Of a stretch of 64,000 bases of DNA, positions 1-12,803 are shown one piece after another. The number at the start of each line of letters is the position of its first letter. Position 1 is the stretch's first letter. The position numbers and the translations under genes were made by a program. The DNA comes from Paracoccaceae bacterium (GTDB lineage Bacteria > Pseudomonadota > Alphaproteobacteria > Rhodobacterales > Rhodobacteraceae). The notes beneath the pieces were generated by a model that saw only the letters and a list, made by a program, of their open reading frames with translations, made no database searches and was not told where the DNA came from. The DNA lies in NCBI GenBank assembly GCA_014323795.1, contig JACONK010000020.1, positions 10,033 to 74,032 of the forward strand, in the 5' to 3' direction.

Positions 1-66
1 ATAAGCGCGTACGGGGAGAGCGTTAACGTTGTCTGGGCTTGACCGCCCCCTCTACACTTGCTAAAC
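1..66 (+). CRISPR. End of a type II-C CRISPR array (one spacer, terminal repeat)
   Basis: Positions 31-66 are a 36-nt repeat that starts GTCTGGGCTTGACC and ends TTGCTAAAC. The 30 nt before it (1-30) fit a type II-C spacer; the rest of the array lies left of the window. The repeat is recognised because 25 nt of it (41-65) recur exactly at 303-327 as the complement of a tracrRNA anti-repeat, and because a degenerate inverted copy lies at 451-485. The end resembles other II-C repeats, which finish in GCTACAAT or similar. The crRNA strand is inferred to be plus, reading spacer then repeat, because the anti-repeat is on the minus strand and the terminator after the repeat faces plus. Only one full repeat is visible, so the consensus cannot be checked here. 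Confidence 0.88.
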
Positions 67-67
67 G
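39..67 (+). promoter_or_regulatory. Sigma70-like promoter embedded in the CRISPR repeat
   Basis: Inside the repeat, TTGACC (39-44) is followed by 17 nt and then TAAACG (62-67), a good -35 and a weak -10. In Neisseria II-C arrays each repeat carries such a promoter, so crRNAs start several nt inside the next spacer. The same layout here would give guides of about 22-24 nt. After this terminal copy the transcript would run straight into the hairpin at 67-97. Confidence 0.5.
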
Positions 68-101
68 ACCCCATGTAACTCCTTGTTACATGGGGTCTTT
101 T
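67..101 (+). terminator. Terminator hairpin directly after the last CRISPR repeat
   Basis: A perfect 13-bp stem (67-79 with 85-97, loop 80-84) is followed by TTTT on the plus strand. It starts at the first base after the terminal repeat. The T-run exists only in the plus direction, which supports plus-strand transcription of the array ending here. Confidence 0.7.
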
Positions 102-184
102 CCTGATTCCATCTTTGAAAATCCGACGCAAAACAGATGTGAATATGGCTGTCCGATGCAGTTTTTCCATCGATTCTCTCCGAC

Positions 185-352
185 AAGAAAAGGGAAAGGG
201 GGACAGACCGAAATCTGTCCCCCCGACAGACAGGCCGCAGCCTGCCTCAATTTTGTGGATATTAACCTGCTTTTAAAGCAGGTTTCACCTTATCAAAGGA
301 AAGACCGCCCCCTCTACACTTGCTAAATACAGAACAGCACCACGTCCCTTTC
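185..352 (-). ncRNA. tracrRNA of the type II-C system
   Basis: On the minus strand, 327 to 303 is a 25-nt perfect complement of repeat bases 41-65. It is followed by an internal loop and then CTTTGAT (299-293 region), which can pair with the repeat start GTCTGGG using G-U pairs. The motif GATAAGG follows, as in the Neisseria tracrRNA (AATAAGG). Next come a palindromic stem (AACCTGCTTT with AAAGCAGGTT, 284-264), a small GC stem near 246-231 and a 10-bp GC terminator (223-198). The gene lies between cas2 and the array, in the cas orientation. The 5' end is inferred from the promoter and the 3' end from the terminator. Confidence 0.85.
186..223 (-). terminator. tracrRNA terminator
   Basis: On the minus strand GGGGGACAGA (223-214) pairs with TCTGTCCCCC (207-198) around a 6-nt loop. 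The tail TTTCCCTTTTCTT follows. This is a classic intrinsic terminator and also the last stem of the tracrRNA. Confidence 0.8.
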
Positions 353-358
353 ATAATG

Positions 359-387
359 CCCATATAACACCCTTTTCGAACTGACAA
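359..387 (-). promoter_or_regulatory. Candidate tracrRNA promoter
   Basis: Minus-strand TTGTCA (387-382) lies 17 nt before TATGGG (364-359); ATATGG at 16-nt spacing is an alternative. A start near 352 would place about 25 nt of leader before the anti-repeat. The flanking sequence is noticeably AT-rich compared with the rest of the window. Confidence 0.45.
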
Positions 388-450
388 CCCCTAAATGCAC
401 TTTTTCAAATTTATTTCGATATATCAGGCTCACATCACAAGAAACATAAA

Positions 451-485
451 GTCCAACAAGCATAGAGGGGCGGTCAAGCCCAGAC
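451..485 (-). repeat. Degenerate, inverted CRISPR repeat next to the cas2 stop
   Basis: Reading the minus strand from 485, the first 19 nt equal the array repeat (GTCTGGGCTTGACCGCCCC). One C is then missing and the end has decayed (TTGTTGGAC against TTGCTAAAC). It is inverted relative to the array copy and begins 4 nt after the cas2 stop codon. The -35-like TTGACC remains but the -10-like end is lost. It may be an array relic, a tracrRNA-binding site in the 3' UTR of the cas mRNA, or a second anti-repeat if read on the plus strand. Confidence 0.75.
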
Positions 486-489
486 CGGT

Positions 490-837
490 TCAAAAAAGAG
501 CCAGTTGACCCGGTTTTTCTTTGGGTTGTGCGGGTCGGGACCGACCGTGAAAAACCCTGCTTTGCGCATATTGCTTGTCTGTGAAGAACAGCACCTGCAC
601 ATGACCTGAATCCGGCACAAAATTACCAACCTTGTGCGCAAAGGATTCCGCCTTTTCCCGGCTCCACGCATACCGCAGATACACTGAAAACTGAACCATC
701 TCAAAACCCAGGTCGAGAAGATCATTGCGAAACCGCGTAGCATTCTTGCGTTCAGTTTTCGTTCCAACCGGGAGATCGAATAATACCCAGACCCACATCA
801 CCTGATACCCTGACAAGATTCTGTAACGTTCAGGCAT
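490..837 (-). CDS. cas2: CRISPR-associated endonuclease Cas2
   Basis: Cas2 partners Cas1 in the spacer-integration complex. The product is 115 aa from the ATG at 837, with the N-terminal beta strand MWVWVLFDLPV whose Asp is the conserved ferredoxin-fold residue, and LGFEMVQFSVYLR as in II-C Cas2 proteins. I chose ATG 837 because it overlaps the cas1 stop (ATGCCTGA) and fits family length. An in-frame ATG at 852 and a TTG at 867 are alternatives. It is the last gene of the cas9-cas1-cas2 operon; the degenerate inverted repeat follows 4 nt after its stop. Confidence 0.93.
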   Translation of the reverse strand: MPERYRILSGYQVMWVWVLFDLPVGTKTERKNATRFRNDLLDLGFEMVQFSVYLRYAWSREKAESFAHKVGNFVPDSGHVQVLFFTDKQYAQSRVFHGRSRPAQPKEKPGQLALF

Positions 838-1738
838 CTTCGTCTTCGTCATCCGGTAGCGGTCCAAGCGGAAAATCCAGTTTCAGCTTGCGGTCAAGGA
901 AGGATCGGGCAAGGCTTTGTGCAAGGCGGACAAGAACCTGGGACAGGGGTGTGGCACCATGTCGGGTCGGGAAATCAGCCGACAGACAGGCGATGAGATC
1001 AGCACGGCTATCTTCCACACCCGCAACTCCCTGTTCCAAGAGCCGATAGACGGCAAGATCGACCGTCGGGCGGAAGGGTTCCATCAGGTCATCAGCCAGG
1101 GCCAGGGCATCACCGCCGGAATTGTGATGAACAGACAGGGACGGGTGCAGCCCGGCAGAAACAATAGCCCGCGCAGTGGCGGCACGTAACACGGCGTAGC
1201 CATAGTTGAGCATGGCGTTGGCACCATCCGCCTTCCTGTCCCGCCGGAAACTTTTCCCCATCAGAAGTGGCCAATAGGCTTGTGCTGCCTGCGCTTCCCT
1301 GTTGTCAGGATCGCCGGAGCGCACAGCCATCAACAGCCTGCGCAGACGGGTGGATGGTTTACCGGTCCGATCCAAAACATCAGCCTGGGCAGCGATCTTG
1401 TGACGCACCAGAGACGCCCATGCCTGTTTACGCAGGGGTAATGTCGCCTCTGCCTGGGCGCGGAACCGGTGTGCCTGTGCATGATGTCCTTTCAACGGCA
1501 GAACAACTGCAACGGGTGTAAAGTCGGACCCGACCATCATAACCGGAACCTGTCGAGCTGCACATTCAGAAAGGGCGTTGCTTGACCACATGACACCGGG
1601 GTTTGCGGACAGCACCACCTCAATATCATCGAGGCTGACCTTCCCGGCTTCGGTTCCGTCCTCGTCAACGGCAAGGAATCCGCGCCGCTTGTGTACAGCA
1701 AGTCCTGTGCGGGTCAGTTCCACAATGCGCCCAGTCAT
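830..1738 (-). CDS. cas1: CRISPR-associated integrase Cas1 (type II)
   Basis: Cas1 is the metal-dependent integrase that inserts new spacers. At 302 aa it has the usual length. It begins MTGRIVELTRTG and carries the helical C-terminal catalytic domain with NYGYAVLRA, GLHPSLSVHH and the DALALADDLMEPFRP region, which hold the conserved metal-binding His and Asp. The very acidic C-terminus (DDEDEDA) is encoded where cas2 starts. Its ATG overlaps the cas9 stop by 2 nt, so the genes are translationally coupled. There is no csn2 or cas4, which defines subtype II-C. Confidence 0.95.
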   Translation of the reverse strand: MTGRIVELTRTGLAVHKRRGFLAVDEDGTEAGKVSLDDIEVVLSANPGVMWSSNALSECAARQVPVMMVGSDFTPVAVVLPLKGHHAQAHRFRAQAEATLPLRKQAWASLVRHKIAAQADVLDRTGKPSTRLRRLLMAVRSGDPDNREAQAAQAYWPLLMGKSFRRDRKADGANAMLNYGYAVLRAATARAIVSAGLHPSLSVHHNSGGDALALADDLMEPFRPTVDLAVYRLLEQGVAGVEDSRADLIACLSADFPTRHGATPLSQVLVRLAQSLARSFLDRKLKLDFPLGPLPDDEDEDA

Positions 1739-4700
1739 GACGGCTTCTTTTTTGACGGAACCCGAGGCATCGTTCCGTGCGGAATGGTAAGCACCCGGCC
1801 CAGCTCATCGACCCGCACCTTATGCGCACGGCGGGCCTTCAGCTTGCCTATTTTGGCTAAATCCCAGCGAAAGGGGTCATCCGGGTCTTCATGTCGTTTT
1901 CGATATTCACCAGCATCATTCACACCGACCAGATACACACGTGAGCTACTCCGATCAAGTTGCACGATTTTCTTGATCCGGTTGCTTCCCGGAACAGGCA
2001 AGCCTGTCTTGTCCAATTCAAACAGCTGCAGCGTATCATTCTTATACAGGCGCATGATGAATTTTGCTTCAGGATGATCTTCCTTCCACGGCTCTTCCGG
2101 GGCGGTTTGTGCTGCCCAAATATCGGTCGCATGGCAAAACCATTTACCATCGGGGTTTTCCAAAACATCCATATAAGCAATTCCATCCGGTATCATCCAT
2201 TTGTAAGGTGCGCTTTTTACCGGCTTGGCTGATTTCTTAGGTTTAATTACCCGGACAGTTCTGACGTTTTTGAAGCCATAGTTTCCAAGATCTTTGTTTG
2301 CTTTGGCTCGAATACGCGCGCGCTGTCTCTTTGACCGTTGTTCGTAATCAGGATAGTACTCCGCGATCCAGTCGCGCTGTTGGGCTAAATGATCCTGCGC
2401 ACCAGTGCGGGAAGACCATTCCGACAAAGCATTCTCCCTGTTCTTGTCACCCTTCACCGCTTCTGTTACCTTGCGCAACTCTTCGCGCAACCGCTGGTCA
2501 CGCACCCGGGTGATCTCCTTTGCCGTCAGTGCCGTTACCGGTTTGCGCGCAGCAAGGTTGCCTATGTTCAATGCAGCCGCATTTTCTGGAATATCACGCA
2601 CCAAGCTATAGGCTGTGTCTTCATGCAGCCGGCCGCTGATTGCATGGTCGGGGCGATGGCTGACACAAAGGTTTCTAACCCGGTCCATCACTTGGTCGCG
2701 AAATCCATCATAGGGTTCCGGCGGTTCCGGAAGAACCCGGTCAAGCTGCTGTGCCCCGATCCTGCGCGCATGGGTTTGCAACATCCGGACCGTGGCCCGG
2801 TCGATCACGCCAACCACCACCGCATCAAGCGCGTGATGGCGATGATCGTTTCGGTCTTTCGCGTTGTGATCCGGCAGGTGCAACCCCCACCGCCGTCGCA
2901 TCAGTGCTGTCATCCGTCCGTTCGGCATCCAGATGTGCGCTGTGCCGTCCTTCGGGAACAGGGCTTCGGCATAGGCCCGCACGACCTTGGCCAGATAACC
3001 GGTAGCGTGCAGCTGGCGTTCCTCAAAACCCTTGTCCTCCTGCCATTTTTCAAGTGCGCCGGGCAGAAACCGCCAAAGTTTCCTTTTCATTCCCGGCGCA
3101 TCTTTTACGCGGTCAATGATGGCACCGAGCGTTGTATCACCCCATGCGTCACCGGGGGACCGCCCGGCCTTTTCCCGGTTCGCGGCCCGAAAGCAGACCG
3201 TCTTGTTGGCCGGGCTGTCATCGAACGTATCACTGAACGGCAGGATATGGTCGATCTCCACCCTGTCGGAATGAAGATCGGTCAGGCCGATGGGCCTGCC
3301 TGAATACGGGCAAAGACGATCAGCACATGTCTTGCCCAGTTCTTCCCAAAGGCGCATCCGTAAAAACCGGTCGCCCGCACGCCCCCCGGGGGGCAGCAGG
3401 CCGCACTCCTCCAGTTCTTCACGCCACCTGTCGTTTCGATTCGTGTTTTTTCTGATCTCGGTTTCTATCTCGTTCAATTCGCGGGCGGATTTGGCCATGT
3501 CGCGTGTGGTTTCGATCACAACCTGGTCAGGTTTCCCGTGGCGGTCGATCAGGGCGTTCATAACCCGCCGAAACTGGCCAAGCCCGATGTGAACCGTGGG
3601 GTTTGAGATCTTTCCGAACCGGATTTCCGGCGGGTCGGCAGGAACGCCGGTACCGGTGCCGATCATGCGCCGGAGTGTCGGCACTTCGTAGTAGCGCGGC
3701 AACCGCGCAACCCCCGGATCACCCTCCGGGCGCAAATCCGAATGGTTAAGAACGACACCATCACCGAACAGACCTGATGCGCTGGCGTACCCGACAGCCG
3801 CGCTGTAGACGCGGACCTCATCCCGCATGGCCCGGACGATGGCACGGGTTGCCCGCAGGCCAAGCCTGATGTGACCGGTCGGCAGCGTGACCTTCTCAAC
3901 CCGTTCAGCAATGTCCGCCGCCAGGCCACATTCATCTTGCAGGCGTCTAATTGCCACATCCGGGGTTTCCGAATCATTAAGGATTGAAAGCAGCAGCACC
4001 TGCTTATCCGCACCCCGGCGCACCCATTCCTCCAATGGTGCCGGGTTTTTCTTCGTGCCGACCGCAAGCCGGGCCGCAACGTCATTATGCGCAGGTTTTT
4101 TCAGCCCGCCGGTTTCAAGATTAATCCCGATATCCGGTGGGATGCCCAAAGCTTTGCGCACCCCGGCCCACGTCAGTTTTTTACCCGACATCAGGTGGTT
4201 CAGCAAAAGATCGCGTTGTGTCAGATCAAGGGAGCACTCCCCCTTGTCTGCGATAATCCGCAACCTGTTGAGTTCCTGAAGAATCAAAAATTCCTGGGCC
4301 AAAGGATGCCATTTCGGAAGGCGATCTTCATCCGGAAAAAAGGTGCAACGCCCCGGTTTCACCGGTTTAAGCGGGCGTTGAAAGAACAATACGCTTTTAA
4401 TTTCGTCCCTTGCCTTGTCGGTCAAATAGTTCGGATGATACTGCGCCTGCATCCGCCAGATGTGATCAAATTCTTCCTCCAGCACGGCGCGGTTCGGATA
4501 AAAGTCATAACCCTTTTCATTATTGAGCCGGATGCGCACGGGCGCACCCTGCGCGTGGCGTCCGGCCAGCCAGGCCCCATAGGTCGGCGCACCCTCCTGT
4601 ACCAACATCTCACGCAGATTCCTTGTAGCATCTGCAATTTTACCCGTATCATCTTTATTCGTCCGATCAGCCTTGCGATTGCTTTTGAACCCCCTGTGCC

Positions 4701-5082
4701 CGGATATATGCCAGATAGCCCGCCCGAGGTCATACAACAACGCCGCCTCATCTCGTGCAGCCCGGGCGCGGGCTTCGTAAGGGTCGGTTGAAAAGAAGTC
4801 TTGGCGGCCCTCATCATCCCCGGCCGGCGGCATCAGCCCATGGGCCGCAAGCACCCCCTCGAGTGCGCCCCGGCGCTTCTTTCGGCGATCACCCTGCCGC
4901 CGCTGCTGGCGCGGCCCCCGCCGCCCCAAGGCGTTGGATTCGCGCGATTTCGGATCGCGCCCCGTAGGGAAGATGCGCGCACCCATGTCAACCAGTTCTA
5001 CCGGTTTGCGTCCGTCACCCTCCAGGCGGAAGACGGACCACCCAAGGGAACCGGAACCAATGTCAAACGCAAAACGTTTCAT
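1735..5082 (-). CDS. cas9: CRISPR-associated endonuclease Cas9 (type II-C)
   Basis: RNA-guided DNA endonuclease of 1115 aa, a compact II-C size. All nuclease motifs are present: RuvC-I FDIGSGSLGW with Asp7, RuvC-II VVIETTRDMA with Glu524, HNH VEIDHILPFSD with Asp611/His612 followed by NKT and NREK, and RuvC-III HHALDAVVVG with Asp753. An arginine-rich bridge helix (LGRRGPRQQRRQGDRRKKRR) follows RuvC-I. The start is ATG 5082, because RuvC-I of II-C enzymes begins within the first ten residues; the in-frame TTG at 5145 adds 21 unlikely residues. AGGTG lies 4-5 nt upstream. It heads the operon. Base composition looks less GC-rich than the flanks, consistent with horizontal transfer (an impression, not a calculation). 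The PAM cannot be read from sequence. Confidence 0.97.
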   Translation of the reverse strand: MKRFAFDIGSGSLGWSVFRLEGDGRKPVELVDMGARIFPTGRDPKSRESNALGRRGPRQQRRQGDRRKKRRGALEGVLAAHGLMPPAGDDEGRQDFFSTDPYEARARAARDEAALLYDLGRAIWHISGHRGFKSNRKADRTNKDDTGKIADATRNLREMLVQEGAPTYGAWLAGRHAQGAPVRIRLNNEKGYDFYPNRAVLEEEFDHIWRMQAQYHPNYLTDKARDEIKSVLFFQRPLKPVKPGRCTFFPDEDRLPKWHPLAQEFLILQELNRLRIIADKGECSLDLTQRDLLLNHLMSGKKLTWAGVRKALGIPPDIGINLETGGLKKPAHNDVAARLAVGTKKNPAPLEEWVRRGADKQVLLLSILNDSETPDVAIRRLQDECGLAADIAERVEKVTLPTGHIRLGLRATRAIVRAMRDEVRVYSAAVGYASASGLFGDGVVLNHSDLRPEGDPGVARLPRYYEVPTLRRMIGTGTGVPADPPEIRFGKISNPTVHIGLGQFRRVMNALIDRHGKPDQVVIETTRDMAKSARELNEIETEIRKNTNRNDRWREELEECGLLPPGGRAGDRFLRMRLWEELGKTCADRLCPYSGRPIGLTDLHSDRVEIDHILPFSDTFDDSPANKTVCFRAANREKAGRSPGDAWGDTTLGAIIDRVKDAPGMKRKLWRFLPGALEKWQEDKGFEERQLHATGYLAKVVRAYAEALFPKDGTAHIWMPNGRMTALMRRRWGLHLPDHNAKDRNDHRHHALDAVVVGVIDRATVRMLQTHARRIGAQQLDRVLPEPPEPYDGFRDQVMDRVRNLCVSHRPDHAISGRLHEDTAYSLVRDIPENAAALNIGNLAARKPVTALTAKEITRVRDQRLREELRKVTEAVKGDKNRENALSEWSSRTGAQDHLAQQRDWIAEYYPDYEQRSKRQRARIRAKANKDLGNYGFKNVRTVRVIKPKKSAKPVKSAPYKWMIPDGIAYMDVLENPDGKWFCHATDIWAAQTAPEEPWKEDHPEAKFIMRLYKNDTLQLFELDKTGLPVPGSNRIKKIVQLDRSSSRVYLVGVNDAGEYRKRHEDPDDPFRWDLAKIGKLKARRAHKVRVDELGRVLTIPHGTMPRVPSKKKPS

Positions 5083-5373
5083 GGCACACCTGATGTCTGT
5101 CAGATAACAAAAGTCAGCCTTAACACAAAAATTCTGTTGACGCAAGAAAATCCCGTAATACCTTGGGTGTTCTTGGCAGAAGAAGCGGCGTGGTGTTTCC
5201 CGCGACAGGGTTCACAACACAGCATAGGGGCAGGCTGCGGCCTGTCCCCGTCCCTTGGGCCGGGTGTGCCGCCTCCGTCCATTCGGGGCTTGCCAAGGCC
5301 AGGCCACCCAGGCGAACATCCCGGTTTATGACCCGCTGGCCGAAATCCCGATAAACAGCCGAAAGGCCCCGCC
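5083..5373. promoter_or_regulatory. Divergent spacer between cas9 and ilvD
   Basis: No gene is supported here. On the minus strand TTGCGT (5145-5140) stands 17 nt before TAAGGC (5122-5117), a weak candidate promoter for the cas operon. The half nearer ilvD is GC-rich with no recognisable promoter. AAAGG lies shortly before the ilvD ATG. Confidence 0.3.
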
Positions 5374-7221
5374 ATGATACCCTACCGATCCAGAACCACG
5401 ACCCATGGCCGCAATATGGCGGGTGCCCGCGGCCTTTGGCGGGCGACCGGGATGACGGACGCGGATTTCGGCAAGCCGATCATCGCGGTGGTCAACAGTT
5501 TCACCCAGTTCGTGCCGGGCCATGTGCACCTCAAGGATCTGGGCCAGCTTGTCGCGCGGGAAATTGAGGCGGCAGGCGGTGTCGCGAAAGAGTTCAACAC
5601 CATAGCCGTGGATGACGGTATCGCCATGGGGCATGACGGGATGCTCTATTCCCTGCCATCGCGAGAGGTGATCGCCGACGCGGCGGAATACATGATCAAC
5701 GCCCATTGCGCCGATGCCATGGTCTGTATTTCCAACTGCGACAAGATTACCCCCGGCATGCTGATGGCCGCCCTGCGGCTCGATATTCCCGCCATCTTCG
5801 TGTCCGGCGGCCCGATGGAGGCAGGCAAGGTGGATATAGACGGCGCGGTGCGGGCGGTGGACCTGGTGGATGCCATGGTGGAGGCGGCAAACCCGGACCG
5901 CACCGATGCGGACGTAAGGGCGTTTGAGGAAAACGCCTGCCCGACATGCGGTTCCTGTTCCGGCATGTTTACCGCCAATTCCATGAACTGCCTGGCAGAG
6001 GCCCTGGGGCTCGCCCTGCCGGGCAACGGGTCCACCCTGGCAACCCACGCGGACCGGGAACAGCTGTTCCGCCGTGCAGGCCGCCGGATCGTGGACCTGA
6101 CGCGCGCCTTCTATGAGCAGGGCAAAACCCGGTATTCCTCCCGCGGGATCGCCACCAGGGCGGCGTTCGAAAATGCCATGCGGCTTGATATCGCCATGGG
6201 CGGGTCAACAAACACCATCCTGCACCTTCTGGCGAGTGCCCGGGAAGGCGAGGTGGATTTTACCATTGCCGACATCGACCGCCTGTCGCGGTCCACGCCC
6301 TGCCTGTGCAAGGTCGCACCCGCAGTGCAGAACGTGCATATGGAGGACGTGCACCGGGCCGGCGGTATTTTCGGCATCCTGGGGGAGCTGGACCGGGCCG
6401 GCCTGCTGGATACCTCTGTCACCACGGTGCACAGCGATACCCTGGCGGCGGCCATCCGGCAGTGGGACGTGACACAAACCAGTGACCCGGCGGTGCATGA
6501 ATTGTTTAGTGCCGCCCCCGGCGGGGTGCGCACAACCCGGGCCTTTAGCCAGAACCGGCGGTATAAGACGCTGGACACCGACCGGGAAAAAGGGGTGATC
6601 CGGTCCGCCGAACACGCGTTTTCCAGGGATGGCGGGCTCGCGGTTCTGTTCGGCAACATCGCCCGGGAAGGCTGCGTGGTAAAAACCGCCGGCGTGGATG
6701 AAAGCCTGCTGCGGTTTTCCGGCCCCGCCATCGTTTGCGAAAGCCAGGAAGAGGCGGTGAACCGCATCCTTGGCAGGCAGGTGGCCGCGGGGGACGTGGT
6801 GGTTATCACCCACGAAGGGCCGCGCGGCGGACCGGGCATGCAGGAAATGCTGTATCCGACCAGCTACCTGAAATCCATGAAACTGGGCACCGCCTGCGCA
6901 CTGATCACCGACGGGCGTTTTTCCGGCGGAACCAGCGGCCTGTCCATCGGCCACATCAGCCCGGAGGCCGGGGAAGGCGGGGCCATCGGCCTGATCCGCG
7001 AAGGCGACATGATCGATATCGACATCCCCGACCGCACCATTAACGTACGCCTGACAGACGCGGAACTGGCCACCCGCCGGGCCGGGATGGAAGCCCGCGC
7101 AAACCCGTGGAAACCCACAAGGCCGCGCAAACGGCGGGTCAGCCGGGCCCTGCGGGTGTATGCCGCCAACGTGTCCAACGCCAGCCAGGGGGCCGTCCGG
7201 CTTGCCCCCGAAGAAGGATAA
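5374..7221 (+). CDS. ilvD: Dihydroxy-acid dehydratase
   Basis: IlvD converts 2,3-dihydroxy-isovalerate and its homologue to the 2-keto acids, the third common step of valine, leucine and isoleucine synthesis, in the cytosol. At 615 aa it matches the E. coli-type enzyme. The Fe-S cysteines appear in NCDKITPG (about residue 125) and [16 protein letters not shown] (about 195). The motifs GGSTNT and DGRFSGG are also present, the latter in the C-terminal active-site region. The C-terminal tail (about 20 residues after NPWKP) is basic and slightly unusual. No other branched-chain genes are adjacent. A long minus-strand open frame (6205-7500) is an antisense shadow. Confidence 0.97.
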
Positions 7222-9208: not shown

Positions 9209-9835
9209 AAGATAAAGCCCCGGCCCGAATGCGAATCCCCCGGGGCAGCCGACCCGCGCCTGTAGGGACAGGGTGCGGGAAAAAGAGCGATTTGCCTGGC
9301 CCTGGCGCACACCGCCATGTTGGTGGCATCGCGGAAGCAGGCTGTCAGGGCGCACCCCTTGTGCCCCCGATGAACCGGGGGCGGGCACCCTGCCTTTGCC
9401 CTGTCGCCAGGGCGGGGCCTGGCCGATGTGTGCGCCATCGCCCTGTCGCGCAAGGGACAGATACGGCCGGATTAACGCCTCATTTATCGGGCACTGGCCG
9501 CCGATTACCCGGTCGGTCTTTCATGGCACACGGGCCCGCAGGGGATTCAGGGCGCAGGAACCGCCCGCCAATGGCAAACGATGCCGGCCGCACCCTGTTT
9601 CACAGTGCTAACCGCGCCTTCCTGCGGGCGATAAACTTCGCATCGGCGGACCTGATTGCCACCGCCCCGGGGGCGGGAAGGCCAGGGGCAGGTTAAAATA
9701 CAAGGCGCGTACACCGCGCCGGCACTGCGTCCGACAACATCCGAAAATATGGCCGCGGGGTATTGACCGCCCCGCCCGGACCCTGTACACACGCCCCTGC
9801 ATCGGCCCGACCGGGCTAGAGAACCGCCAACAGAA
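9209..9835. other. Non-coding, decayed accessory DNA
   Basis: No intact gene. Positions 9420-9460 echo the DUF488 motif (DVCAIALSRKG-like) and 9465-9573 are one arm of a dispersed inverted repeat. Positions 9361-9420 resemble 7310-7380 (both contain TTTGCCCTGTCGCC), another short duplication. Confidence 0.5.
9465..9573 (-). repeat. Dispersed inverted repeat, left copy
   Basis: The reverse complement of this 109-bp stretch matches 17592-17743 almost base for base in its first 70 nt (CATTGGCGGGC, TTCCTGCGCCCTGAAT, GAAAGACCGACCGG) and again at the end (GCCCGATAAATGAGGCG). This copy lacks about 43 bp that are tandemly duplicated in the right copy. It encodes nothing recognisable. Confidence 0.8.
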
Positions 9836-10306
9836 ATGTATGAATCCATGTCTGCTCTCCCCACCGTGATACATCAGGGCATAACGTATATAATGGCCGA
9901 AACCGACAACGGCGAGGAATTGAATCGGAACCATGTCCACCCGGATATCAGCTACACTGTCGTCGGCAGGGCGGGAAATGACACGCTAAACGGCGGGGCC
10001 AAGGCCGATATGCTGGACGGCGGGGAAGGTATTGACACCGCCGTTTACAGTGATTCGAACGCCGGGGTGACGGTGAACCTGGCCACCGGCCGCGGCAGTG
10101 GCGGGGATGCGCACGGCGATGTGCTGACCAGTATCGAAAACCTGATCGGGTCCGGCCATAACGACAGGCTGACCGGGGATGGTGGCAACAACGTGCTGAA
10201 AGGCGGGGGCGGCAACGACAGGCTGAAAGGCGGGGGCGGCGACGACACGCTGGAGGATATGGCGGCCGCACACCTTGCCGAAGACGATTTCGCATTCCAG
10301 GGCTAA
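9836..10306 (+). CDS. Small RTX (calcium-binding repeat) protein, probably a fragment
   Basis: A 156-aa frame with hemolysin-type nonapeptides: GRAGNDTLNGGAKADMLDG, then a spacer of the VTVNLATGRGSG type, then GGNNVLKGGGGNDRLKGGG and GGDDTLEDM. Such beta-roll repeats bind calcium outside the cell and usually sit in large type I-secreted proteins. Here no catalytic or large passenger domain remains, and the end (EDDFAFQG) is short, so this is probably a leftover C-terminal piece. The start is uncertain; the first ATG is used, and others at 9848 and 9893 are possible. A frameshifted RTX fragment also occurs at 36336-36544. Confidence 0.65.
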   Translation: MYESMSALPTVIHQGITYIMAETDNGEELNRNHVHPDISYTVVGRAGNDTLNGGAKADMLDGGEGIDTAVYSDSNAGVTVNLATGRGSGGDAHGDVLTSIENLIGSGHNDRLTGDGGNNVLKGGGGNDRLKGGGGDDTLEDMAAAHLAEDDFAFQG

Positions 10307-12030: not shown

Positions 12031-12803
12031 TGGCCCTGCGTTCTGATCTTGACAGGTTCTATGCCGTGCTGGATGCGCTTGAAACCAGGGTCGGCGGCCG
12101 GCACCGGCTGGGCGATTGTCACGGGCGGATGCCCTGGCCCCGGCGCGGGGTGTATTTCTTTTTTGAACCGGGCGAACACCGCACTGCCCCTTCCGCCCCC
12201 GGGCGGGTGGTGCGGGTCGGCACACACGCCCTGGCCGCAAGATCCCGCACAACGCTTTGGAACCGGCTGTGCCAGCATCGCGGCACCAAAAATCCGCCGG
12301 GGGGAAACCATCGCGGCTCCATCTTCCGGCTGCTGGCCGGGGAGGCATTGATCAATGGGCACCCTTGTCGTTAGCAGGGTTCCGCTGCATCCATCTTCCG
12401 GCTGCTGGCCGGGGAGGCATTGATCAACGCTGACCCGGCACTGAACATTGAAAGCTGGGGCCGGGGGGCCAACGCGCCCCGGGATGTGCGGGCGCGGGAG
12501 CGGCCGCACGAGCTCCGGGTAAGCCGATACCTCGGGGATATGACGCTGCTGGTGCTGGATATCCCGGATGCCCCCGGCCCGGACAGCGCGCGCGGGATTA
12601 TCGAACGCAACAGCATTGCCCTGCTCAGCAGCTATCTGGCCCCCCGCCCGGATGTCCCCGGCCCCGGCTGGCCGGGCCGTCACAGCGGGCGGGAAAGGGT
12701 GCGCCGGTCCGGCCTTTGGAACAACAACCATGTGGATGCGCCGTATGACCCGGAATTCCTGAACCTTTTTGCCGACCTGGCCGGGCGGATGCCCGCCCCC
12801 TGA
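12030..12803 (+). pseudogene. Conserved hypothetical gene split by a 72-bp insertion with one stop
   Basis: The N-terminal part (12030-12371) starts MALRSDLDRFYAVLDALE and contains GRMPWPRRGVYFFFEPGE and LWNRLCQHRGT, reminiscent of GIY-YIG-like small nucleases. A TAG at 12372-12374 stops it. The C-terminal part continues in the same frame (SIFRLLAGEALINADPAL to GLWNNNHVDAPYDPEFLNLF) until 12803. The interruption is a 72-bp in-frame insertion: a 37-bp segment is repeated (12319-12355 and 12391-12427) with 35 unrelated bp between. Without it the protein would be about 233 aa. It follows DUF6884 directly; the two look like a gene pair. Confidence 0.75.
12319..12427. repeat. 37-bp direct repeat flanking a 35-bp insertion
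   Basis: CCATCTTCCGGCTGCTGGCC and the 17 nt after it occur twice, starting at 12319 and 12391. The spacing of 72 nt keeps the reading frame but the intervening 35 nt bring a TAG. It resembles a target duplication around a small insert. Confidence 0.9.

What the first reader, a model, noticed from the sequence alone, without database searches (positions are those of the whole stretch)
1..5082. A complete type II-C CRISPR-Cas9 locus with an identifiable tracrRNA
All parts of a minimal RNA-guided nuclease are in view: a compact 1115-aa Cas9 with intact RuvC and HNH residues, Cas1, Cas2, a repeat, and a tracrRNA (about 352-185, minus) with a 25-nt perfect anti-repeat, GATAAGG nexus, stem loops and terminator. 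The repeat sequence is not one I recognise from the common II-C systems. A compact GC-rich-host Cas9 with its own guide scaffold may have a distinct PAM.
Basis: partly seen in the sequence, partly recalled or inferred. Interest (0 to 1): 0.7.

Follow-up and report, generated by a model that had tools for sequence, protein, structure and literature searches.

The report
Cas9 locus with two tracrRNA dialects
This bacterial CRISPR-Cas9 immune locus carries two different versions of the helper RNA that loads guides onto Cas9: an inherited one that no longer fits the only repeat seen, and a second one beside the array that fits it exactly and has a repeat copy in front of it, which could fold into a ready-made single guide RNA.

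Summary
The type II-C locus is real: Cas9 (1735-5082, -), Cas1 and Cas2 match their families, and the tracrRNA at 352-185 (-) has a 25/25 anti-repeat. It is not complete: a 20-N scaffold gap sits just left of the window, and one repeat with one spacer is all of the array that is left in the assembly. Its anti-repeat fits the repeats of six close relatives (Rhodovulum adriaticum, G999 and four more) but not the window's repeat. (2) The tracrRNA that does fit lies in an insert of about 385 nt between array terminator and cas2. (3) In front of it, on its strand, is a diverged repeat copy (485-451); its five substitutions all keep pairing with the anti-repeat, and the strand folds as one single-guide-like hairpin. 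I read this as a locus that switched its repeat/tracrRNA dialect, leaving the old tracrRNA orphaned; the lost array makes this an inference. No target was found for the single-guide form. In passing, two relatives (L049, L059) carry compact sgRNA-like genes with nearby matching sites.

The parts
1..30 (+). last (cas2-proximal) spacer of the array, 30 nt; what lay to its left is lost in a 20-N scaffold gap
   Evidence: repeat and spacer frame set by comparison with the 36-nt repeats, period mostly 66, of relatives
31..66 (+). CRISPR repeat (36 nt), new dialect, crRNA sense on +
   Evidence: only copy in the assembly at <=3 mismatches
67..97 (+). terminator-like hairpin at the end of the array; R. 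adriaticum has a similar one there
102..486 (.). insert of about 385 nt between array terminator and cas2, absent from R. adriaticum and G999
   Evidence: comparison with L104 8480-8580 and L147 5305-5376
185..352 (-). tracrRNA 2 (fits the visible repeat); 5' end not mapped
303..327 (-). anti-repeat of tracrRNA 2, 25/25 to the repeat
264..302 (-). GATAAGG nexus region of tracrRNA 2, with an extra 9-bp hairpin (284-264) not in the clade
197..247 (-). tail hairpin shared with the clade (247-228) and an extra terminator-like hairpin (224-197)
451..485 (-). R': diverged repeat copy upstream of tracrRNA 2 on its strand (one deletion, 5 substitutions, each keeping a G.U pair with the anti-repeat)
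490..867 (-). cas2
830..1738 (-). cas1 (type II)
1735..5082 (-). cas9, 1115 aa
5174..5252 (+). tracrRNA 1: ancestral-dialect tracrRNA at the usual position; anti-repeat core 5176-5193 exact to the R. adriaticum repeat; GATAAGG changed to GACAGGG

Best explanation
A type II-C CRISPR-Cas9 locus that has switched guide-RNA dialect. The ancestor used a repeat of the GTCCGGGYTTGGCY...TTCTGCTAGRAY kind and a divergent tracrRNA just upstream of cas9, as its closest relatives still do. In the window lineage the array repeat is different and is served by a second tracrRNA (352-185, -) between cas2 and the array; the old tracrRNA upstream of cas9 does not fit the visible repeat and is an orphan. Inferred mechanism: a crRNA from the array (+ strand) pairs over 25 nt with the new anti-repeat and loads Cas9. 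A longer minus-strand transcript that begins before R' could instead pair R' with the same anti-repeat and form a single-guide-like RNA whose guide would be the 3' end of cas2 plus four bases. Shown by sequence: both tracrRNAs, their repeat specificities by pairing, R', the insert. Inferred: expression, processing, direction of the switch, that the lost array has the same repeat. Not shown: any target or function of the single-guide form.
For: Window repeat with tracrRNA 2: -56.8 kcal/mol, 0 of 200 shuffles as good; with tracrRNA 1: -26.9, 102 of 200 as good. Repeats of six clade members with tracrRNA 1: -50.4 to -61.2, 0 of 200 each; with tracrRNA 2: -30.7 to -35.0, 9 to 59 of 200 as good. 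R. adriaticum: 35 array matches to the 18-nt old-dialect core, 34 of them exact, plus its own tracrRNA, and no new-dialect match at <=3 mismatches. G999 (Cas9 64-68% identical): 9-repeat array whose core differs from the old-dialect core by one base, tracrRNA upstream of cas9, about 71 nt between cas2 and array. The window genome has no old-dialect core at <=2 mismatches besides tracrRNA 1 itself. Cas9 tree of 49 rows: window + R. adriaticum 100*, clade of six 100*. In 38 of 40 array-bearing relatives the best anti-repeat lies upstream of cas9, within about 70-530 nt. In 39 of 39 loci examined the cas2-proximal repeat is within one base of the array consensus, so the visible repeat should represent the lost array. 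R' scores 45 against a shuffle maximum of 25; the highest of 40 relatives is 26. Fold of 490-185 (-): z -5.67, 0 of 100 shuffles as good; without the tail, 490-303: z -3.13, 0 of 200.
Against: The array is missing from the assembly, so the dialect of its other repeats is inferred. TracrRNA 1 is not clearly decayed: it departs from the other eight at 7 of 57 invariant columns, but L123, whose tracrRNA fits its own array, departs from the other seven at 7 of 64, and its anti-repeat core is intact. TracrRNA 2 has an unusual hairpin in the nexus region, so Cas9 binding is not assured. No sigma-70-like promoter was found by consensus scan in 1-900 or 5000-5450. Part of the fold's z-score comes from the tail hairpins. 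The stem beyond R' is not better than chance over the whole loop (338 of 500 shuffles as good); the favourable sub-segment (2 of 500) was picked afterwards. No site with >=10 suffix matches for the R' guide in the 16-kb locus. No transcript data.
Confidence: 0.7

Rival explanations
1. Both tracrRNAs are in use: Cas9 reads two repeat dialects, and an old-dialect array exists but is missing from the assembly (37 contigs, array lost at a gap).
For: TracrRNA 1 keeps an exact anti-repeat core although Cas9 has diverged to about 64% from R. adriaticum; GATAAGG is kept in tracrRNA 2 and changed at two bases in tracrRNA 1; the assembly demonstrably lost array sequence.
Against: No old-dialect core at <=2 mismatches elsewhere in the 2.58-Mb assembly; completeness given as 98%; GATAAGG is changed only in tracrRNA 1 among the ten tails compared.
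Confidence: 0.15
2. TracrRNA 2 plus R' is mainly a regulatory single-guide RNA (works like tracr-L of type II-A), and its fit to the array repeat follows from its origin in that repeat.
For: R' and anti-repeat lie on one strand; the fold joins them; all five substitutions in R' keep pairing on that strand. Two relatives carry compact sgRNA-like second tracrRNAs with nearby matching sites.
Against: No matching site near the cas9 promoter or elsewhere in 16 kb; the guide would be the end of cas2; six exact 12-mer sites in the genome, the R' site included, give no pattern (only the one at 12159 was looked at); tracrRNA 1 does not fit the visible repeat, so the array would then have no tracrRNA of its own.
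Confidence: 0.1
3. R' is only debris: an old array or insertion remnant left in inverted orientation, with no role. (This rival concerns R' alone and can hold together with the best explanation.)
For: It lies four bases after the cas2 stop codon and has no target found; inverted repeat copies can arise by local rearrangement (general knowledge).
Against: Five of five substitutions keep pairing with the anti-repeat on the tracr strand (on the other strand they would be A.C); about 0.4% if each change is equally likely, about 3% if only transitions occur (my arithmetic). Five changes are few.
Confidence: 0.4
4. The whole insert, or the second tracrRNA, is an assembly artefact at a contig end.
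For: It lies close to a scaffold gap preceded by a poly-C run.
Against: No gap between position 1 and cas2; repeat, R' and anti-repeat fit one scheme; the tail is homologous to clade tracrRNAs.
Confidence: 0.04

Closest known systems
   Same: Cas9 about 64-68% identical, Cas1 75-84% and Cas2 78-81%; same order of cas genes as far as the broken R. adriaticum contigs show; crRNA antisense to cas; a similar array terminator in R. adriaticum; GATAAGG in the tracrRNA tail
   Different: One tracrRNA was found, upstream of cas9, in the old dialect; no insert between array and cas2; no R' found
Long-form tracrRNA (tracr-L) of Streptococcus pyogenes type II-A
   Same: A long tracrRNA that acts as a natural single guide (PMC11417352, passages; PMC8730458, passages); that it has a repeat-like element 5' of the anti-repeat is recalled
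   Different: Type II-C here; no matching site in the cas promoter found; the guide would be the end of cas2; loop of about 125 nt
scaRNA of Neisseria meningitidis (type II-C)
   Same: A type II-C small RNA whose fold its authors liken to an sgRNA (PMC13431127, passages)
   Different: Said there to act on efeO mRNA; not compared in sequence here
[quoted passage not shown]
   Same: PMC8730458 (passages) cites this as the suggested origin of tracrRNAs
   Different: Here the tail is homologous to the clade's existing tracrRNA, so a tracrRNA was copied or imported rather than made anew from a repeat alone

Membership tests
Type II-C CRISPR-Cas | Cas9 with RuvC and HNH domains | tested here: met
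Type II-C CRISPR-Cas | cas1 and cas2 of type II kind, no csn2 or cas4 in the operon | tested here: met
   TIGR03639 and TIGR01573; cas9, cas1 and cas2 adjoin; the next gene beyond cas9 is ilvD, the ORF 39-326 in the insert has no NCBIfam match, and across the gap lies an acetate--CoA ligase
Type II-C CRISPR-Cas | array of 36-nt repeats with 30-nt spacers | tested here: inconclusive
   one repeat and one 30-nt spacer before a gap; frame from relatives
Type II-C CRISPR-Cas | tracrRNA whose anti-repeat pairs with the array repeat | tested here: met
   tracrRNA 2; not met by tracrRNA 1
Type II-C CRISPR-Cas | RNA-guided cleavage of foreign DNA | not testable with these tools
   needs experiment
tracr-L (natural single-guide RNA) | repeat-like element upstream of the anti-repeat on the same strand, folding onto it (feature recalled) | tested here: met
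tracr-L (natural single-guide RNA) | guide matching a PAM-flanked site in the cas promoter | tested here: not met
tracr-L (natural single-guide RNA) | separate promoters for long and short forms | tested here: inconclusive
   no consensus promoter on either strand in 1-900
tracr-L (natural single-guide RNA) | repression of cas genes by Cas9 bound to it | not testable with these tools
   needs experiment

The most novel reading that the evidence does not exclude
Duplicated tracrRNAs in type II-C systems can become natural single-guide RNAs. In the window, R' plus tracrRNA 2 makes a long one, and one Cas9 has tracrRNAs of two dialects beside it; in relatives L049 and L059 the second tracrRNA has become a compact sgRNA gene whose 12-13-nt guide end matches a nearby site flanked by NCAAACT, so that Cas9 may regulate its own guide-RNA locus.
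Probability: 0.3. Interest if true: 0.78.

Novelty: new variant of a known kind. Interest (0 to 1): 0.55.

Why it matters
How a repeat and its tracrRNA change together without breaking immunity is an evolutionary question that is hard to observe. This locus appears to hold the before and the after side by side: the old tracrRNA still fits the relatives' repeats, the new one fits the present repeat. It makes the intermediate testable. It also suggests that single-guide forms of tracrRNA, which I know as an established mechanism only from type II-A, may exist in type II-C, and it gives two non-cross-pairing tracrRNAs for one Cas9 lineage, which could be of practical use.

Tried and rejected
Rfam at gathering scores: 0 matches in the window. 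Guide target for R' in the tracr-L manner: none at the cas9 promoter; the exact 12-mer at 12159-12170 lies inside an ORF, and six copies exist genome-wide (R' included), so rejected. Extension of the R' stem into the loop: not better than chance as a whole. TracrRNA 1 as a clearly dead relic: weakened, since L123 departs as often; a terminator-like scan of 5000-5450 found none and three T in the 12 bases after its stem stand against four to seven in the eight relatives, but the relatives' tails were not put through that scan.

PAM from spacers: 110 of 111 clade spacers, 50 of 102 spacers of L038/L049/L059 and the window spacer were compared with the phage collection (counts). Two near-full matches: L120 spacer 16 to Paracoccus phage Shpa (1 mismatch, 3' flank CCGAACAGCC) and an L059 spacer (number 50 of my list) to Sphingomonas phage Eidolon (2 mismatches, flank ACGTAGTTGA). 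Two partial matches dropped: one L059 spacer to four E. coli phage records, of which one was fetched (3 mismatches towards the PAM side), and a poor one to a Pseudanabaena phage. No PAM can be stated; NNRAAC fits L120 and the two sgRNA-like sites but not the Eidolon flank. Cas9 relatives in IMG/VR: none by six peptide patterns; in plasmids the highest identity among the 30 of 55 records listed is 36.3%.

Rows left out: of 47 other genomes matching, 35 were fetched and 12 weak ones were not; all 13 others were fetched. Of 51 relatives' loci put into (L007 and L104 left out), 11 had no usable array in the stretch held and could not be counted for tracrRNA position. The anti-repeat assignment failed for L039 (noise; a gap upstream) and points beyond the array for L064; both count as misses in 38 of 40. 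The Cas9 tree has 49 of 50 sequences put in; L124 was dropped for length, and G999 and G870 were not among those put in. A first regex scan for tails missed known cases and was dropped for blastn. would not see a cas2-proximal repeat with more than 12 differences.

Papers: Faure et al. (by a DOI from memory, and by the PMC id cited in PMC8730458), Dooley et al. (DOI from memory), Workman et al. and Chylinski et al. are not held; what I say of them is recalled or comes from PMC8730458. Passages of PMC9067536 (a II-C tracrRNA model, mostly Bacteroidetes) were seen and not used. Searches, by their listings, showed no report of two tracrRNAs in one II-C locus; subscription papers are mostly absent there.
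Full report
What is there. The window's left end holds a type II-C locus. Cas9 (1735-5082, -; 1115 aa), Cas1 (830-1738, -) and Cas2 (490-867, -) match their families well, and the Cas9 nuclease positions line up with a solved Cas9 (identity of the catalytic residues recalled). Beyond cas9 lies ilvD, and across the gap an acetate--CoA ligase gene. Set against relatives, the repeat is 36 nt, 31-66, preceded by one 30-nt spacer, 1-30.

What is missing. The window begins directly after a 20-N scaffold gap that follows a poly-C run (L002 about 9998-10032). In the whole assembly (2.58 Mb, 37 contigs) the 35-base repeat occurs once at up to 3 mismatches. So the array is lost, and 'complete locus' does not hold. 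In 39 of 39 loci examined the cas2-proximal repeat differs by at most one base from the array consensus; at the far end only 24 of 39 do. The visible repeat is therefore a fair sample of the lost ones. This is an inference.

The relatives. Protein searches of 61, 385, 390 and 389 genomes, one of genome contigs and a DNA search of 394 genomes gave the loci compared; which were left out is told under Tried and rejected. Of 40 with a usable array, 38 have their best anti-repeat upstream of cas9, on the strand opposite to cas9; L064 has it beyond the array and L039 gave only noise. The array follows cas2, with crRNA antisense to cas. In a tree of 49 Cas9s the window joins R. adriaticum (100*) within a clade of six (100*).

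Two dialects. The clade shares a repeat GTCCGGGYTTGGCY...TTCTGCTAGRAY (R. adriaticum, L120-L123, L147) and a tracrRNA with GCAGAAGAAGC in its anti-repeat and GGTCTTTC..GATAAGG in its tail upstream of cas9 (these six and also G792 and G870, whose arrays were not seen). R. adriaticum's array gives 35 matches to the 18-nt core, 34 of them exact. The window has this same kind of tracrRNA at the same place, 5174-5252 (+), with the 18-nt anti-repeat core intact, but no array for it. Duplex energies separate the two: the window repeat pairs with tracrRNA 2 (-56.8, 0 of 200 shuffles as good) and not with tracrRNA 1 (-26.9, 102 of 200); six clade repeats pair with tracrRNA 1 (-50.4 to -61.2, 0 of 200 each) and poorly with tracrRNA 2 (-30.7 to -35.0; 9, 12, 24, 37, 59 and, for L147, 15 of 200). 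The new-dialect repeat was not found in R. adriaticum, in 364 other genomes of the order or, as an exact 21-mer, in IMG/VR.

The insert. In R. adriaticum the array ends in a terminator hairpin and the cas2 stop follows within about 50 nt (L104 8480-8580); in L147 about 71 nt separate cas2 and array. The window has the hairpin (67-97) but then about 385 nt more, holding tracrRNA 2 and R'. DNA of the insert (102-489) matched only tracrRNA tails in two clade members among 393 other genomes. The tail of tracrRNA 2 is homologous to the clade (best 85% over 41 nt, E 1.5e-6), but has an extra 9-bp hairpin in the nexus region and a second terminator-like hairpin.

R'. Four bases after the cas2 stop, on the strand of tracrRNA 2, lies a 35-nt diverged repeat: one deletion and five substitutions against 31-66. 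All five are changes that keep pairing with the anti-repeat on this strand (C to T and A to G; the pairs appear as G.U in the fold), and would be A.C on the other. The chance is about 0.4% if any base is equally likely and about 3% if only transitions occur (my arithmetic). The strand 490-185 folds with R' on the anti-repeat; z -5.67, 0 of 100 shuffles as good. Part of that comes from the tail; for 490-303 alone z is -3.13, 0 of 200. Searched against the 300 nt upstream of the anti-repeat, the repeat scores 45 in the window (maximum of 100 shuffles 25); among 40 relatives the highest score is 26, in L071 (its own shuffle maximum 24). A long tracrRNA that acts as a natural single guide is known from type II-A (tracr-L; PMC11417352 and PMC8730458, passages). 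But its defining target, a site in the cas promoter, was looked for and not found here, so I do not file this as tracr-L.

Reading. The simplest account is a dialect switch: a copy of a clade tracrRNA came to lie beside the array, its anti-repeat and the repeat are now matched, and the tracrRNA upstream of cas9 is left over. Whether the new pair drifted in place or was imported with an array from a cousin system cannot be told; the 5' fourteen bases of the repeat stay close to the clade's. TracrRNA 1 may be decaying: its GATAAGG is GACAGGG, and it departs at 7 of 57 columns invariant in the eight others. But L123, which fits its own array, departs at 7 of 64 invariant in its seven others, so decay is not proven.

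A wider pattern. A blastn of 40 tracrRNA tails over 52 loci (the window's included) found two tails in four: the window, L049, L059 and L071; one (L073) had none. In L049 and L059 the second copy does not fit the array. It reads guide, GTTGC-stem, short loop, stem, nexus, terminator, that is, a compact single guide RNA (MFE -53.0 and -53.6 kcal/mol). For each, one non-self site with at least 10 suffix matches and at most one mismatch exists in the locus of 14 kb: 12 of 12 (L049 5192-5203, flank GCAAACTTTA) and 12 of 13 (L059 5221-5233, flank ACAAACTGGA). The guides differ apart from their last five bases while the flanks agree. The two loci are related and the sites lie upstream of the sgRNA-like genes rather than at cas9, so this is a lead and not a proof.

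PAM. Only two near-full protospacers were found, with flanks CCGAACAGCC (L120) and ACGTAGTTGA (L059). No PAM can be stated for the window's Cas9.

Literature. Within the open library the listings of five searches showed no report of two tracrRNA dialects at one II-C locus. The key papers on tracrRNA evolution and tracr-L are not held. A 2026 paper likens a type II-C scaRNA of N. meningitidis to an sgRNA (PMC13431127, passages), so single-guide-like RNAs in II-C have a precedent in outline.

Noticed in passing
L049 (G078) about 5020-5142, minus strand: A second tracrRNA copy that looks like a compact sgRNA gene; its 12-nt guide end matches L049 5192-5203 (+), flank GCAAACTTTA.
   Followed up: partly
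L059 (G302) about 4892-5017, minus strand: Another compact sgRNA-like copy with a different guide; 12 of 13 match at L059 5221-5233 (+), flank ACAAACTGGA, so guide and site differ from L049 together while the flank is alike.
   Followed up: partly
L071 (G363), reversed coordinates 5047-5129: A second tracrRNA tail with a duplicated nexus-like segment whose upstream part does not match the array repeat as its main tracrRNA does; looks like a relic.
   Followed up: partly
L064 (G070), reversed coordinates 9602-9680: The tracrRNA lies beyond a two-repeat array downstream of cas2 instead of upstream of cas9.
   Followed up: partly
L006 1-4604 (Rhodovulum adriaticum): Transposition genes (three of four ORFs with Mu-transpos_C, TniB or TniQ domains) lie about 1.4 kb upstream of cas9, divergent from it; kinship to Tn7-like elements is recalled.
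   Followed up: partly
L104 about 4935-6330 and the ends of L104 and L006 (R. adriaticum): An insert of about 1.4 kb separates the first two repeats from the rest of the array, and both contigs break inside cas1 with similar flanking sequence, as if an insertion element had split cas1.
   Followed up: no
L002 about 9998-10032, just left of the window: A run of C followed by 20 N: the scaffold join at the array may be artificial, so the acetate--CoA ligase gene to its left may not be the true neighbour.
   Followed up: no
L002 1927-4826: Two ORFs with many GGxGxDxLxGG-like repeats (RTX type by eye, not tested).
   Followed up: no
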